DNA from: Gemmatimonadaceae bacterium
Lineage (GTDB): Bacteria; Gemmatimonadota; Gemmatimonadetes; Gemmatimonadales; Gemmatimonadaceae
NCBI GenBank assembly: GCA_019637445.1
Contig: JAHBVS010000001.1
Coordinates: 310,001-374,000, forward strand
Length of the DNA: 64,000 nt
Direction of reading: 5' to 3'
Part shown: positions 48,664 through 52,709 of the stretch, one piece after another
Layout: each line of letters starts with the position of its first letter
How positions within the stretch are numbered: position 1 is the first letter of the stretch
Translations under genes and position numbers: made by a program
The notes under the pieces: model-generated
What the model saw: only the letters and a program-made list of their open reading frames with translations
What the model was told of the DNA's origin: nothing
Databases searched by the model: none

Positions 48664-50181
48664 ATGCCTGACTCCGGAAGCGCCTTCACCTCGCTCGACT
48701 GGGTCGTCCTCGTGCTCTACCTCGTGGGCACGACCGTGCTCGGCGTCCGGCTCGGACGTGGCCAGAAGAATGCCCGCGATTACTTCGTGGCCGACGGGAC
48801 GATCCCGTGGTGGGCGGTGCTCTTCTCGGTCGTGGCCACGGAGACCAGCGCGCTCACGTTCATCTCGATCCCCGGGCTCGCGTACCTAGGAGACCTCGGC
48901 TTCCTCCAGGTTGCCACAGGCTACCTGCTCGGCCGCGTGGTCGTCGCGTACACGCTGTTGCCTCGCTATGCAGAGGGCGAACTGGTCACCGCGTACGCGC
49001 TGTTGGAGCGGCGTTTTGGGCTCGCGACACGACGCTTCGCCTCGGTGACGTTCATGGTCACGCGGGCCTTCGGCGATTCCGTGCGATTGTTCGCGACCTC
49101 GATTCCAGTCGCCCTGATCCTGTCGGGCATCTTCGCGCCGAGGCTCGCCGCGCCACTAGCCATCCTCGTGCTGGGCATCGCGACGGTGATCTACACGTAT
49201 CACGGCGGCATGCGCGCCGTCGTCTGGACGGACGTACTTCAGATGGGCGTGTACCTGCTCGGCGGGCTTGGCGCGCTGTGGCTGATCGGCGCCGGCGTGG
49301 ACGGCGGCTGGGGCGAGATTCTTTCGCGCGCCGGTGAGGCGGGCAAGCTCAAGATGCTGGACTTCCACACAGGCTTCGATCGTCCGCACACGGTGTTCGC
49401 AGGCCTGCTCGGTGGCGGCTTCCTCGCGATGGCTTCCCACGGCGCCGACCAGATCATCGTGCAGCGGCTGCTGGCCTCGGGCTCGCTGCGCGATGCCCGG
49501 CGCGCGCTCATCGGCAGCGGCGTGATCGTCATCGCCCAGTTCGCGCTGTTCCTGCTGATCGGTATCGGGCTCTGGGCGTTCTACGACGCGCAGGCCTTCC
49601 CTGCCCCGGACCGCATCTTCCCGGCCTTCATCATCGCCGAGATGCCGCCGGTGATGACGGGCGTCGTGATCGCCGCCATCCTCGCGGCAGCGATGAGCAC
49701 GGTGTCGGGCTCGCTGAACGCGCTCGCGGCGTCGACGCTGCACGACCTCTATGCGCCGCTGCGTGGCGCACCGGAGGGCGCCGAGGGGCTGCGGCTCTCG
49801 CGGGTGTTCACGCTGCTGTGGGCGGTCGTGCTGGTCGGGGGCGCACTGCTGTACCGCGCCGAGGGCACGCCAGTGGTGGTGATCGCGCTGAGCATCGCGA
49901 GCTTCACCTACGGCGGCCTGCTCGGCGGGTTCTTTCTCGCCATGCTGTGGCCCCGCGCCACGCAGCGGGATGCCGTGACTGGGATGGCCGTGGGTATCTT
50001 TGTGATGAGCATCGTGGTGTTTGCGGGACGGCTCGTCGCGGCGTTTCCGCAGCTCGCGGGTCCGCTGGCACCGGTCACTGGAATCGCCTGGCCGTGGTTC
50101 GTGTTGATTGGCACGGCCGTGACACTCACGGTGGGCATCGTTTCGTCGTACACACACGCGGCGCCACGCTCGGCGCCCTGA
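48664..50181 (+). CDS. Sodium:solute symporter (SSS family)
   Basis: A 505-residue membrane protein from ATG 48664 with about 13 hydrophobic helices, as usual for the SSS family. Family marks are ARDYFVADGTIPWWAV near residue 38, ETSALTFISIPG in the second helix region, and the C-terminal AAAMSTVSGSLNALAASTLHD (the segment AAMSTVSGSLNALA). Na+ drives uptake of sugars, amino acids or other solutes. Its neighbours, a BadF-type sugar kinase 23 bases downstream and the NagZ/NamZ enzymes upstream, suggest GlcNAc, MurNAc or anhydro-sugar uptake across the inner membrane. That is inference from context. Confidence 0.88.
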   Translation: MPDSGSAFTSLDWVVLVLYLVGTTVLGVRLGRGQKNARDYFVADGTIPWWAVLFSVVATETSALTFISIPGLAYLGDLGFLQVATGYLLGRVVVAYTLLPRYAEGELVTAYALLERRFGLATRRFASVTFMVTRAFGDSVRLFATSIPVALILSGIFAPRLAAPLAILVLGIATVIYTYHGGMRAVVWTDVLQMGVYLLGGLGALWLIGAGVDGGWGEILSRAGEAGKLKMLDFHTGFDRPHTVFAGLLGGGFLAMASHGADQIIVQRLLASGSLRDARRALIGSGVIVIAQFALFLLIGIGLWAFYDAQAFPAPDRIFPAFIIAEMPPVMTGVVIAAILAAAMSTVSGSLNALAASTLHDLYAPLRGAPEGAEGLRLSRVFTLLWAVVLVGGALLYRAEGTPVVVIALSIASFTYGGLLGGFFLAMLWPRATQRDAVTGMAVGIFVMSIVVFAGRLVAAFPQLAGPLAPVTGIAWPWFVLIGTAVTLTVGIVSSYTHAAPRSAP

Positions 50182-50204
50182 CCCTTCCCTTTGCTGGACG
50201 CGCA

Positions 50205-51128
50205 ATGGCACAGATCGTCGTCGGTGTGGATGGTGGTGGCAGCAAGACGCAGGTGATCGTGGCGAACGCCAAGGGCAAGGAACTCTCGTCGATCACCGGC
50301 GACGGCAGCGCCCTGCGCCCCGGCGAGGCGCTGGCCTCGGCCGAGATCATCGGCAGCCTGGTCCGCGACGCGCTGGCGGCCGCGGAGATCGAGGATCGTC
50401 CGGCCCTCGTGGTCGTGGGCGTGGCGGGCGCCGGCCGCGAGAAGGAGCGCAAGGCGCTGCTGCGCGCGCTGCGCGGCGAGACGGTGGCGGACGAGATCGA
50501 GGTGGTCACCGACGCCGAGATCGCGCTGGCGGATGCGTTTGGTCGCGACGGCGCGGGCCTGCTGCTGGTGGCGGGCACGGGCTCGGTGGCCTTCGGCCGG
50601 GGCCCCGCCGGCGAGTTCCGTCGCTGCGGTGGCTGGGGCCCGGACATCGGCGACGAGGGCAGCGGCGCCTGGATCGGACGTCGTGCGCTGAGCGTCGTGA
50701 CGTCGTCGTCGGACGGCCGCGAGCCGGAGACGCGACTGACGGGCGCGCTGATGACGGCACTTGAGCTCGAGACGCTCGAGGACCTGATTCCCTGGGCGGC
50801 GAACGCCTCGCCGAAGGACCTGGCGGGCTTGGCCGCGCACGTGATGACGCTGGCCTCGGACAAGGACTTACGGGCCAACTCGATCTGCACGGTCGCGGCG
50901 GAGGAACTTGTGCTCCACGTCCGCACTTTGGCGCGGCAACTCTTCGTGGACGAGCGCGCCGCGGTGCCGGTGGCCTTGGCTGGCGGCCTGATGGCGCGCG
51001 GGTCCTACGTGCGCCGCCTGGTGGAGCATCGGCTCAAGTCCGCCGTGCCTGGGTCACAGCTGCACGCCGAGGAGGTCGTGCCGGCGCGTGGGGCGGTCAA
51101 GTTGGCTGTTTCGCTGGCAAAGGTCTGA
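50205..51128 (+). CDS. BadF/BadG-type amino-sugar kinase (NagK/MurK-like)
   Basis: A 307-residue ASKHA-fold kinase. The phosphate-1 loop is GVDGGGSKTQVIVA (residues 7-20), and further motifs are LLLVAGTGSVAFGRGP and GWGPDIGDEGSGAWIGR, typical of N-acetylglucosamine kinases and the MurNAc/GlcNAc kinase MurK. It would phosphorylate amino sugars brought in by the symporter 23 bases upstream. No murQ (MurNAc-6-phosphate etherase) or nagA/nagB is seen nearby, so the downstream steps must be encoded elsewhere. A terminator follows inside the CACAGAG repeat. Confidence 0.88.
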   Translation: MAQIVVGVDGGGSKTQVIVANAKGKELSSITGDGSALRPGEALASAEIIGSLVRDALAAAEIEDRPALVVVGVAGAGREKERKALLRALRGETVADEIEVVTDAEIALADAFGRDGAGLLLVAGTGSVAFGRGPAGEFRRCGGWGPDIGDEGSGAWIGRRALSVVTSSSDGREPETRLTGALMTALELETLEDLIPWAANASPKDLAGLAAHVMTLASDKDLRANSICTVAAEELVLHVRTLARQLFVDERAAVPVALAGGLMARGSYVRRLVEHRLKSAVPGSQLHAEEVVPARGAVKLAVSLAKV

Positions 51129-51167: not shown

Positions 51168-51358
51168 TTGCCACAGAGGCACAGAGACACAGAGGTGTCA
51201 GGACGCGCGCTGGCCTCTGTGCCTAGTCCAAGAACAACTGCTTAGGGGGCTCGGCGGACAGCTATGTTCGCCGAGCCCCTTTCTGTTCCAACAAAGAAGA
51301 AGACACAGAGGTGTCGGCTTGCTCCGACGCCCTCTGTGTCTCTGTGCCTCTGTGGCAA
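51168..51358. repeat. 191-base element bounded by perfect 28-bp inverted CACAGAG repeats
   Basis: The left arm 51168-51195 (beginning TTGCCACAGAGGCACAGAG) and right arm 51331-51358 are perfect inverted copies. The inside holds a second copy of GACACAGAGGTGTC (51186-51199 and 51302-51315) and an intrinsic terminator. It contains no gene and sits between convergent transcription units. Confidence 0.9.
51245..51288 (+). terminator. Rho-independent terminator of the amino-sugar kinase gene
   Basis: An 11-bp perfect stem (51246-51256 with 51269-51279) has a 12-base loop and is followed by TTTCTGTT. It lies within the CACAGAG element, about 117 bases past the kinase stop. Confidence 0.75.
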
Positions 51359-51380
51359 ACTCAGCGCACCAAACCCAGCC

Positions 51381-52709
51381 CTACGCCGTCGTTGGCGCCT
51401 CGGCGGGGATGCTTGCCGCGGACCAGACCTTTTCGGACGACGCCACGAAGGTGGTGGCCGAGATGTCCGAGGCCACGTTCACCACGGTGCGCGTCATGTC
51501 GAGGATGCGGTCCACGCCGAGCACGATCGCGATCGCCTCGCCGGGCACGCCCATCATCGCCAGGATGCCGACCAGCAGCGGGATCGAGCCCCCGGGCACG
51601 CCGGCCGCGCCGATGGCCGTGATCACGCTCATGATGATCACTACCACCATCCCGCCCAGCGAGAGGTCCACGCCGAAGACCTGGCAGAGGAAGATGACCG
51701 TGATGCCCTCGAAGATGCTCGTACCGTTCATGCACATCGTGGAGCCCAACGGCAGCACGAAACCGGCGATCTTGGGCGGCACACCCAGGCCCTCCTGCGA
51801 CGCGCGCAGCGCCGCGGGCAGGGTGGCCGAGCTCGAGCTGGTCGAGAAGGCCGTCACCAGCGCGCCCTTGATGCGCGAGAAGTATGTGACCGGGCTGATG
51901 CCGATGATGAACTTCAGGATGAGCGAAAGGTTCACGAACATGTGCAGCAGCAGCGCGCTCATCACCACGATGACGTAGCCGCCGAGCGGTTTGAGCAACG
52001 CGAAGCCGAAGCGCGAGGTGACGCCGAAGATCAGGCCGGCCACACCGTAGGGCGCGAGTCTCATCGCCATCCCTACGATGACGATGACGACTTCATACAA
52101 CGACTCGAGGAACTTGATCATCGGGGCCGACTGCTCCGGCTTGAGCTGCGTGAGCGCCGCGCCGAAGATGAGGCCGAAGAAGATCACGCCGAGCATGTCC
52201 GTGTCCGCGGCCGACTTCACCGGGTTGCGCGTCACGATGTTCACGAAGGTGTTGATGCCAAAGCCACCTGTTGCGTTCTGCTCGACCTTTGCCGAGGCGT
52301 CGTCGGCGTAGACCTCCATCAGCTCGACCTTCACGTTCTCCGGCACGGACGAGCCAGGGTCAATGATGTTCACCATCAGCAGGCCGAAGGTCGCCGCAAC
52401 GGCCGTCGTGCCGAAGAAATAGCCGATGGCCTTGCCGCCCACCTTGCCGACCTTTCGCAGGTCTCCGAGCCCCGCCACGCCAAGCGCGATGGACGAGAAC
52501 ACCAGCGGCATCACGATCATGAACAGCATCCGCAGGAAGATCTGGCCGACCGGCCCCGCGAGATACGTGTTGACCCAGACCACCCGGCCGTCGTCGCCAC
52601 CCAGCGTGAGGTTCGCCACCACACCGGCGACGCCACCCAGCACGAGCGCCAGCAGGATCTTGGTGTGGAGCTTCATGCCCTTGCCGCTACCGCCGATCGA
52701 TTCCGACAT
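51381..52709 (-). CDS. Dicarboxylate/amino acid:cation symporter (DAACS family)
   Basis: A 442-residue secondary transporter of the glutamate/aspartate symporter fold, with eight transmembrane helices and two hairpins. HP1 shows the serine-rich STSSSSATLP (residues 289-298). TM8 keeps GVDRILDMTRTVVNVASD, whose Asp and Arg bind substrate. The TM7 cation-binding motif normally NMDGT reads CMNGT at residues 326-330, so the sodium-coordinating Asp is Asn328. Ion coupling may therefore differ. A periplasmic insertion at about residues 120-165 is present. The APC permease gene stops immediately upstream of it, so the two transporters are cotranscribed. Confidence 0.92.
   Translation of the reverse strand: MSESIGGSGKGMKLHTKILLALVLGGVAGVVANLTLGGDDGRVVWVNTYLAGPVGQIFLRMLFMIVMPLVFSSIALGVAGLGDLRKVGKVGGKAIGYFFGTTAVAATFGLLMVNIIDPGSSVPENVKVELMEVYADDASAKVEQNATGGFGINTFVNIVTRNPVKSAADTDMLGVIFFGLIFGAALTQLKPEQSAPMIKFLESLYEVVIVIVGMAMRLAPYGVAGLIFGVTSRFGFALLKPLGGYVIVVMSALLLHMFVNLSLILKFIIGISPVTYFSRIKGALVTAFSTSSSSATLPAALRASQEGLGVPPKIAGFVLPLGSTMCMNGTSIFEGITVIFLCQVFGVDLSLGGMVVVIIMSVITAIGAAGVPGGSIPLLVGILAMMGVPGEAIAIVLGVDRILDMTRTVVNVASDISATTFVASSEKVWSAASIPAEAPTTA

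What the first reader, a model, noticed from the sequence alone, without database searches (positions are those of the whole stretch)
51168..51358. Perfect 28-bp inverted CACAGAG repeats bounding a 191-base non-coding element
Two 28-base arms made of CACAGAG-like units are perfect inverted copies 135 bases apart. The interior repeats GACACAGAGGTGTC and holds an intrinsic terminator. Low-complexity but perfectly palindromic DNA of this kind is not explained by the flanking genes. It may be a dispersed non-autonomous element, a cruciform-forming site, or a terminator module that moves as a unit.
Basis: seen in the sequence. Interest (0 to 1): 0.62.

Follow-up and report, generated by a model that had tools for sequence, protein, structure and literature searches.

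The report
Dispersed palindromic repeat between convergent genes
This 191-base stretch is one of about fifty related fold-back DNA repeats in this bacterium; they mostly fill the gap between two genes that run towards each other, where they probably help end transcription, and jumping genes of the IS110 family land exactly inside their arms, apparently steered by a guide RNA that matches the arm.

Summary
In detail: perfect 28-nt inverted arms (51168-51195 / 51331-51358) enclose a GC-rich palindrome.

It is not a one-off. The host genome holds about 50 related elements: a ~187-199 nt form and a ~75 nt hairpin-only form. They favour convergent gene pairs (33/50 elements against 45/330 sampled gene neighbours) and avoid divergent ones (0/50). 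Most lie within tens of bases of stop codons. Arms are ~96% identical between 19 full-length copies and interiors 55-68%; the central stem shows compensatory changes.

Related species at the same orthologous gap carry a different CACAGAG element, a CACGAAG-unit hairpin, a simple hairpin, or nothing. Short CACAGAG hairpins occur in many phyla.

Best reading: a REP-like intergenic palindrome family acting as a bidirectional 3'-end/terminator hairpin. It is not a classical REP (no GTAG/CGTC tag, no RAYT in the genome) and not a demonstrated MITE (no target-site duplication).

Unexpected: all 11 IS110 transposons of one group (2/2 in this genome, 8 in G012, 1 in G008) sit at a CT core inside an arm. 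Their putative bridge-RNA guide reads CACAGAG where the host repeat is CACAGAG, and CACGAAG or CACGGAG in the CACGAAG hosts.

Termination and mobility were not tested experimentally.

The parts
51168..51195 (+). left 28-nt arm TTGCCACAGAGGCACAGAGACACAGAGG (three CACAGAG units)
   Evidence: 96% mean pairwise column identity over 19 full-length copies
51331..51358 (-). right 28-nt arm, exact inverted copy
51188..51221 (.). left side hairpin: CACAGAGG 51188-51195 with CCTCTGTG 51214-51221, variable loop
   Evidence: read from the sequence; same layout in many full-length copies
51304..51338 (.). right side hairpin: CACAGAGG 51304-51311 with CCTCTGTG 51331-51338, variable loop
   Evidence: read from the sequence
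51246..51279 (.). central GC-rich palindrome, terminator-like; homologous in the other full-length copies with compensatory changes
51359..51386 (-). outer flank module of type A1; reverse complement GGGCTGGGTTTGGTGCGCTGAGTTT read from the symporter side, a similar module is seen beside many copies (overlaps the last bases of the symporter gene)
49818..51128 (+). ORF holding a BadF/BadG-type ATPase gene (GVDGGGSKTQ motif; real start inside the ORF), convergent partner on the left
   Evidence: family named from its motif, not scanned
51381..52709 (-). sodium:dicarboxylate symporter (SDF, PF00375), convergent partner on the right

Best explanation
The element is one copy of a species-specific, REP-like family of dispersed intergenic palindromes. 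It fills the gap between two convergent genes and most likely acts, at the RNA level and in both directions, as a 3'-end structure. A transcript leaving either gene first makes a purine-rich CACAGAG arm and then a strong GC hairpin, at which polymerase stops or 3' trimming halts. If polymerase runs on, the second arm pairs with the first into a 28-bp stem that caps the RNA. Because the element is a palindrome, one copy serves both genes. Shown: copy number, architecture, convergent bias, arm conservation, central-stem covariation, replacement at the orthologous site, and IS110 insertion at a fixed point in the arms. Inferred: termination or 3'-end protection, and the reason the arms are conserved. 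The way copies spread is unknown.
For: Copies: about 50 elements, ~187-199 nt or ~75 nt. Context: 33 convergent, 17 tandem, 0 divergent, mostly within tens of bases of stop codons; a 400-kb sample of the genome has 45/241/44 neighbours by type, with an element in 6 of 45 convergent, 4 of 241 tandem and 0 of 44 divergent gaps; Fisher p 2.8e-14 for elements, 6e-4 for gaps. Conservation: arms 0.96 against interior 0.55-0.68. Central stem: 9 pairs with changes on both sides against 4.9+-1.4 in shuffles, covariation score reached by 0/500 shuffles, slid versions clearly lower. Orthologous site: G001, G007 and G009 carry a plain GC hairpin where G000 and G002 carry CACAGAG elements and G012 a CACGAAG hairpin. 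Folding z -11.9.
Against: U-tracts after the hairpins are short. In G005 and G008 the same gene pair has touching or overlapping stop codons and no hairpin, so the element is dispensable there. In other phyla only 28/109 hairpins are convergent and 12/109 divergent, so the role cannot be only that of a convergent terminator. Shuffle controls ignore relatedness of copies. The convergent bias could come from tolerance of insertion rather than from function. Gene calls used a home-made codon model.
Confidence: 0.6

Rival explanations
1. A selfish non-autonomous mobile element (MITE-like) spread by an unidentified transposase that reads the arms as terminal inverted repeats; it sits between convergent genes only because insertion there does least harm.
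For: Uniform lengths and homologous interiors of many copies; patchy presence among close species; species-specific unit types; the same site bare in G005 and G008.
Against: No target-site duplication at the arm ends; no Y1 transposase in the genome; left and right outer flanks are independent modules; arms hardly diverge while interiors differ by 30-45%, unlike a uniformly decaying element.
Confidence: 0.25
2. A target array: the arms exist mainly as landing sites maintained for, or by, bridge-RNA-guided IS110 elements.
For: All 11 IS110 copies of this group insert at the CT core of an arm, and the guide follows the unit.
Against: IS110 copies are far fewer than palindromes (2 against about 50 in G000) and insert without moving the palindrome; G002 and G016 have arms but no detected IS110 (G002 is only 71% complete). 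IS110 as a parasite of existing repeats is simpler and is the known relation to REPs (PMC1525189).
Confidence: 0.05
3. A DNA-level site: a cruciform, or a binding site for a nucleoid protein or gyrase that relieves positive supercoils between convergent genes, as proposed for REPs.
For: Perfect palindromy, DNA folding z -10.5, convergent bias, near-invariant 8-nt periodic arm units.
Against: Central-stem changes fit equally an RNA hairpin; nothing here tests protein binding.
Confidence: 0.1

Closest known systems
REP / BIME elements (GTAG- and CGTC-tagged palindromes; RAYT-associated)
   Same: High-copy intergenic palindromes, mainly between convergent or co-directional genes (PMC3733652), and IS110-family targets such as ISPa11 6/6 and ISPpu9 7/7 (PMC1525189).
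   Different: Much longer (75-199 nt against 20-40), no GTAG or CGTC tag at the stem base, no RAYT in this genome, and built of tandem 8-nt CACAGAG units.
Stem-loop-containing repeat families (PMC1590033, PMC2267715)
   Same: Intergenic repeat families with a shared predicted stem-loop, proposed to act as RNA.
   Different: Those are described per species; here the same 7-mer recurs in hairpins of many phyla.
MITEs
   Same: Terminal inverted repeats, dispersed, non-coding.
   Different: No target-site duplication and no matching transposase found.
Bidirectional intrinsic terminators of convergent genes
   Same: GC-rich palindrome between convergent stop codons; other convergent pairs in the genome carry single hairpins there.
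   Different: Here the hairpin is wrapped in side hairpins and a conserved 28-bp outer stem, repeated at dozens of loci.
IS621 and other IS110 elements with bridge RNA (PMC11208160)
   Same: CT core, right guide on the 3' side of the target loop pairing with the top strand, palindromic repeat as target.
   Different: Target is the CACAGAG/CACGAAG arm; homologous guides differ between species in step with the repeat unit.

Membership tests
REP (GTAG/CGTC) | high-copy intergenic palindrome | tested here: met
REP (GTAG/CGTC) | GTAG or CGTC tetranucleotide at one end of the palindrome | tested here: not met
   arm ends are TTGCC/GGCAA in G000
REP (GTAG/CGTC) | size 20-40 bp | tested here: not met
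   main forms ~75 and ~187-199 nt
REP (GTAG/CGTC) | RAYT (Y1_Tnp) gene in the genome | tested here: not met
   PF01797 absent; 5 of 14 control genomes positive
MITE | terminal inverted repeats | tested here: met
MITE | target-site duplication | tested here: not met
   40 elements
MITE | cognate autonomous transposase with the same ends | tested here: inconclusive
   none seen; only PF01797 and PF01548 were searched genome-wide
bidirectional intrinsic terminator | GC-rich palindrome between convergent stop codons | tested here: met
bidirectional intrinsic terminator | U-tract on both sides | tested here: inconclusive
   TTTCTGTT on +, CTAAGC on -
bidirectional intrinsic terminator | transcripts end there | not testable with these tools
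   needs RNA data
IS110 target site (bridge RNA) | IS110 recombinase domain in the inserted elements | tested here: met
   PF01548 in all 11 copies
IS110 target site (bridge RNA) | insertion at a fixed CT core in the arm | tested here: met
IS110 target site (bridge RNA) | guide complementary to the target | tested here: inconclusive
   right guide 9-10 nt paired, reached by 9-37 of 1000 shuffles per element; left guide weak in G000

The most novel reading that the evidence does not exclude
CACAGAG-type palindromes form one bacterial repeat class found across many phyla, whose 8-nt arm units are kept by a trans-acting factor or by an unknown copying process, and IS110 transposons in this genus have followed the changing unit by mutating their bridge-RNA target guide: a natural record of RNA-guided retargeting tied to a host repeat.
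Probability: 0.3. Interest if true: 0.78.

Novelty: new variant of a known kind. Interest (0 to 1): 0.55.

Why it matters
If right, it adds a large REP-like palindrome family in phyla where such repeats are little described, links it to the ends of convergent genes, and offers a natural pair of homologous IS110 elements whose right target guides differ as their host repeats do. That makes guide/target co-change directly testable. It may also explain an assembly break: contig C1 of this genome starts inside an IS110 copy whose right end lies in an arm.

Tried and rejected
One-off duplication: rejected. RAYT-driven REP: rejected for this genome. Known RNA family: no Rfam match at gathering score; weak hits are most likely chance. 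Classical transposon ends with target duplications: none found. Chance low-complexity motif: rejected by folding z-scores and copy number. Literature: no open-access paper in the library holds the CACAGAG or CACGAAG double-unit strings searched; the library lacks most subscription journals. Taxonomy: comparing sample proteins with the named loci gave no close relative, so the organism's phylum is not settled. The G005 IS110 copies that were read lie in other contexts.

Full report
Observation. The two 28-nt arms are real and perfect, in a 252-nt gap between a BadF/BadG-type gene ending at 51128 and a sodium:dicarboxylate symporter ending at 51381 on the other strand. The stretch folds as one long hairpin with a z-score near -12.

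Copies. The host genome (3.35 Mb, 7 contigs) holds CACAGAGNCACAGAG 91 times on one strand and 101 on the other. BLAST with the 191-mer finds about 20 full-length relatives of ~187-193 nt at 73-83% identity, and many shorter pieces. Reading about 50 loci shows a common plan: TTGCC + three CACAGAG units, a side hairpin, a spacer, a central GC palindrome, and the mirror image of all this. Hairpin-only forms of ~75 nt have the two arms and a ~19-nt loop. A CACGGAG variant shares the central palindrome. Outer flanks are modular (GTGCGCTGAG- or AACTGC-type) and the two sides are often of different type.

Conservation. In 19 full-length copies arms agree at 96%, the rest at 55-68%. The central stem holds 9 pairs with double changes; shuffles reach that in 2 of 500 and the covariation score in 0 of 500, and sliding the partner drops pairing from 86% to 39-53%. 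The copies are related to one another, so the shuffle control is generous.

Context. With a codon-usage gene caller, 33 of 50 elements lie between convergent genes, 17 between tandem genes and none between divergent genes. In 400 kb of the same genome the neighbours are 45 convergent, 241 tandem and 44 divergent; elements occur in 6, 4 and 0 of these gaps (tests). Other convergent gaps in the sample hold single GC hairpins, and some carry similar layered palindromes with GATGAAG- or GACGAAG-type arms.

Relatives. Only 8 of 61 genomes, G000 itself included, have the CACAGAG motif. G012 has mainly a CACGAAG family (52+49 hits), G008 has both, G000 has no CACGAAG. At the orthologous symporter/BadF gap G002 has a CACAGAG element with another inner hairpin, G012 a CACGAAG hairpin, G001, G007 and G009 a plain GC hairpin, and in G005 and G008 the stop codons touch or overlap. 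G000, G005, G008, G012 and G002 form one clade, so the site has changed state more than once.

Breadth. Many are metagenome bins, so single assignments may be wrong. There the convergent excess is milder (28/109 against 74/590) and 12/109 are divergent.

IS110. In G012 wide-set arms turned out to flank insertion sequences: IS30-like and IS481-like elements in the interior and IS110-family elements inside an arm. A PF01548 search found 2 copies in G000, 14 in G012 and 1 in G008. Both G000 copies, 8 of the G012 copies (all members of two types) and the G008 copy lie in an arm at the same kind of point, with CT at the junctions: CTCTGTGC-CT-CTGTGG in G000, CTTCGTGC-CT-TCGTGG in G012 (one copy is in a CTCTGTGC-CT-CCGTGG arm), CTTCGTGT-CT-TCGTGG in G008. 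For the G000 C1 copy only the right end is on the contig. The left non-coding end has the bridge-RNA layout described for IS621 (PMC11208160). At the homologous place it reads GTCACAGAG in G000, GTCACGAAG in G012 type 2 and G008, and GCCACGGAG in G012 type 1; the G000 and G012 type 2 elements are 82% identical. Each fits its own target over 9-10 nt with wobbles. The single-element match is not overwhelming (9-37 of 1000 shuffles), the G012 type 1 guide would also fit a CACAGAG arm with one wobble, and the left guide in G000 fits poorly; the difference between the closely related G000 and G012 type 2 guides is the stronger point. This is the known REP-IS110 relation (PMC1525189) with a new repeat.

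Mechanism. Best supported is a bidirectional 3'-end or terminator hairpin that spreads or is replaced quickly. Position, palindromy and covariation are shown; termination is inferred. What copies the element is unknown: no RAYT, no target duplication.

Limits.

Noticed in passing
L317 (G000:C2:196841-200260), L311 (G000:C1:1-1926), L308-L310, L314, L320, L322, L324, L326, L328: Eleven IS110-family elements inserted at a CT core inside the palindrome arms; the putative bridge-RNA right guide reads CACAGAG in G000 and CACGAAG or CACGGAG in G012/G008.
   Followed up: partly
L289 (G012:C1:333800-337200), L290 (G012:C1:1139200-1142500): An IS30-like (HTH_38 + rve) and an IS481-like transposon sit in the interior of CACGAAG palindromes.
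   Followed up: partly
L270 and L294 (G012), L297 and L298 (G002): CACGAAG and CACAGAG/CACGGAG arms are nested or interleaved in one gap, with different module order on the two sides in L270.
   Followed up: no
L229 ~1756, L240 ~731, L247 ~8743 (G000); G015: Other layered palindromes at convergent gaps built of GATGAAG or GACGAAG 7-mers; G015 has 11+5 GGATGAAGGATGAAGG hits.
   Followed up: no
L321, L323, L325, L327, L329 (G005): IS110-family copies embedded in ~1.5-kb repeats bounded by TAACGTGTGCTTCTGCTGC / GCAAGCGTCGTTA, resembling integron attC sites.
   Followed up: no
L111, L140, L218: In some other phyla the palindrome extends 10-20 bases beyond the CACAGAG arms into the flanks.
   Followed up: no
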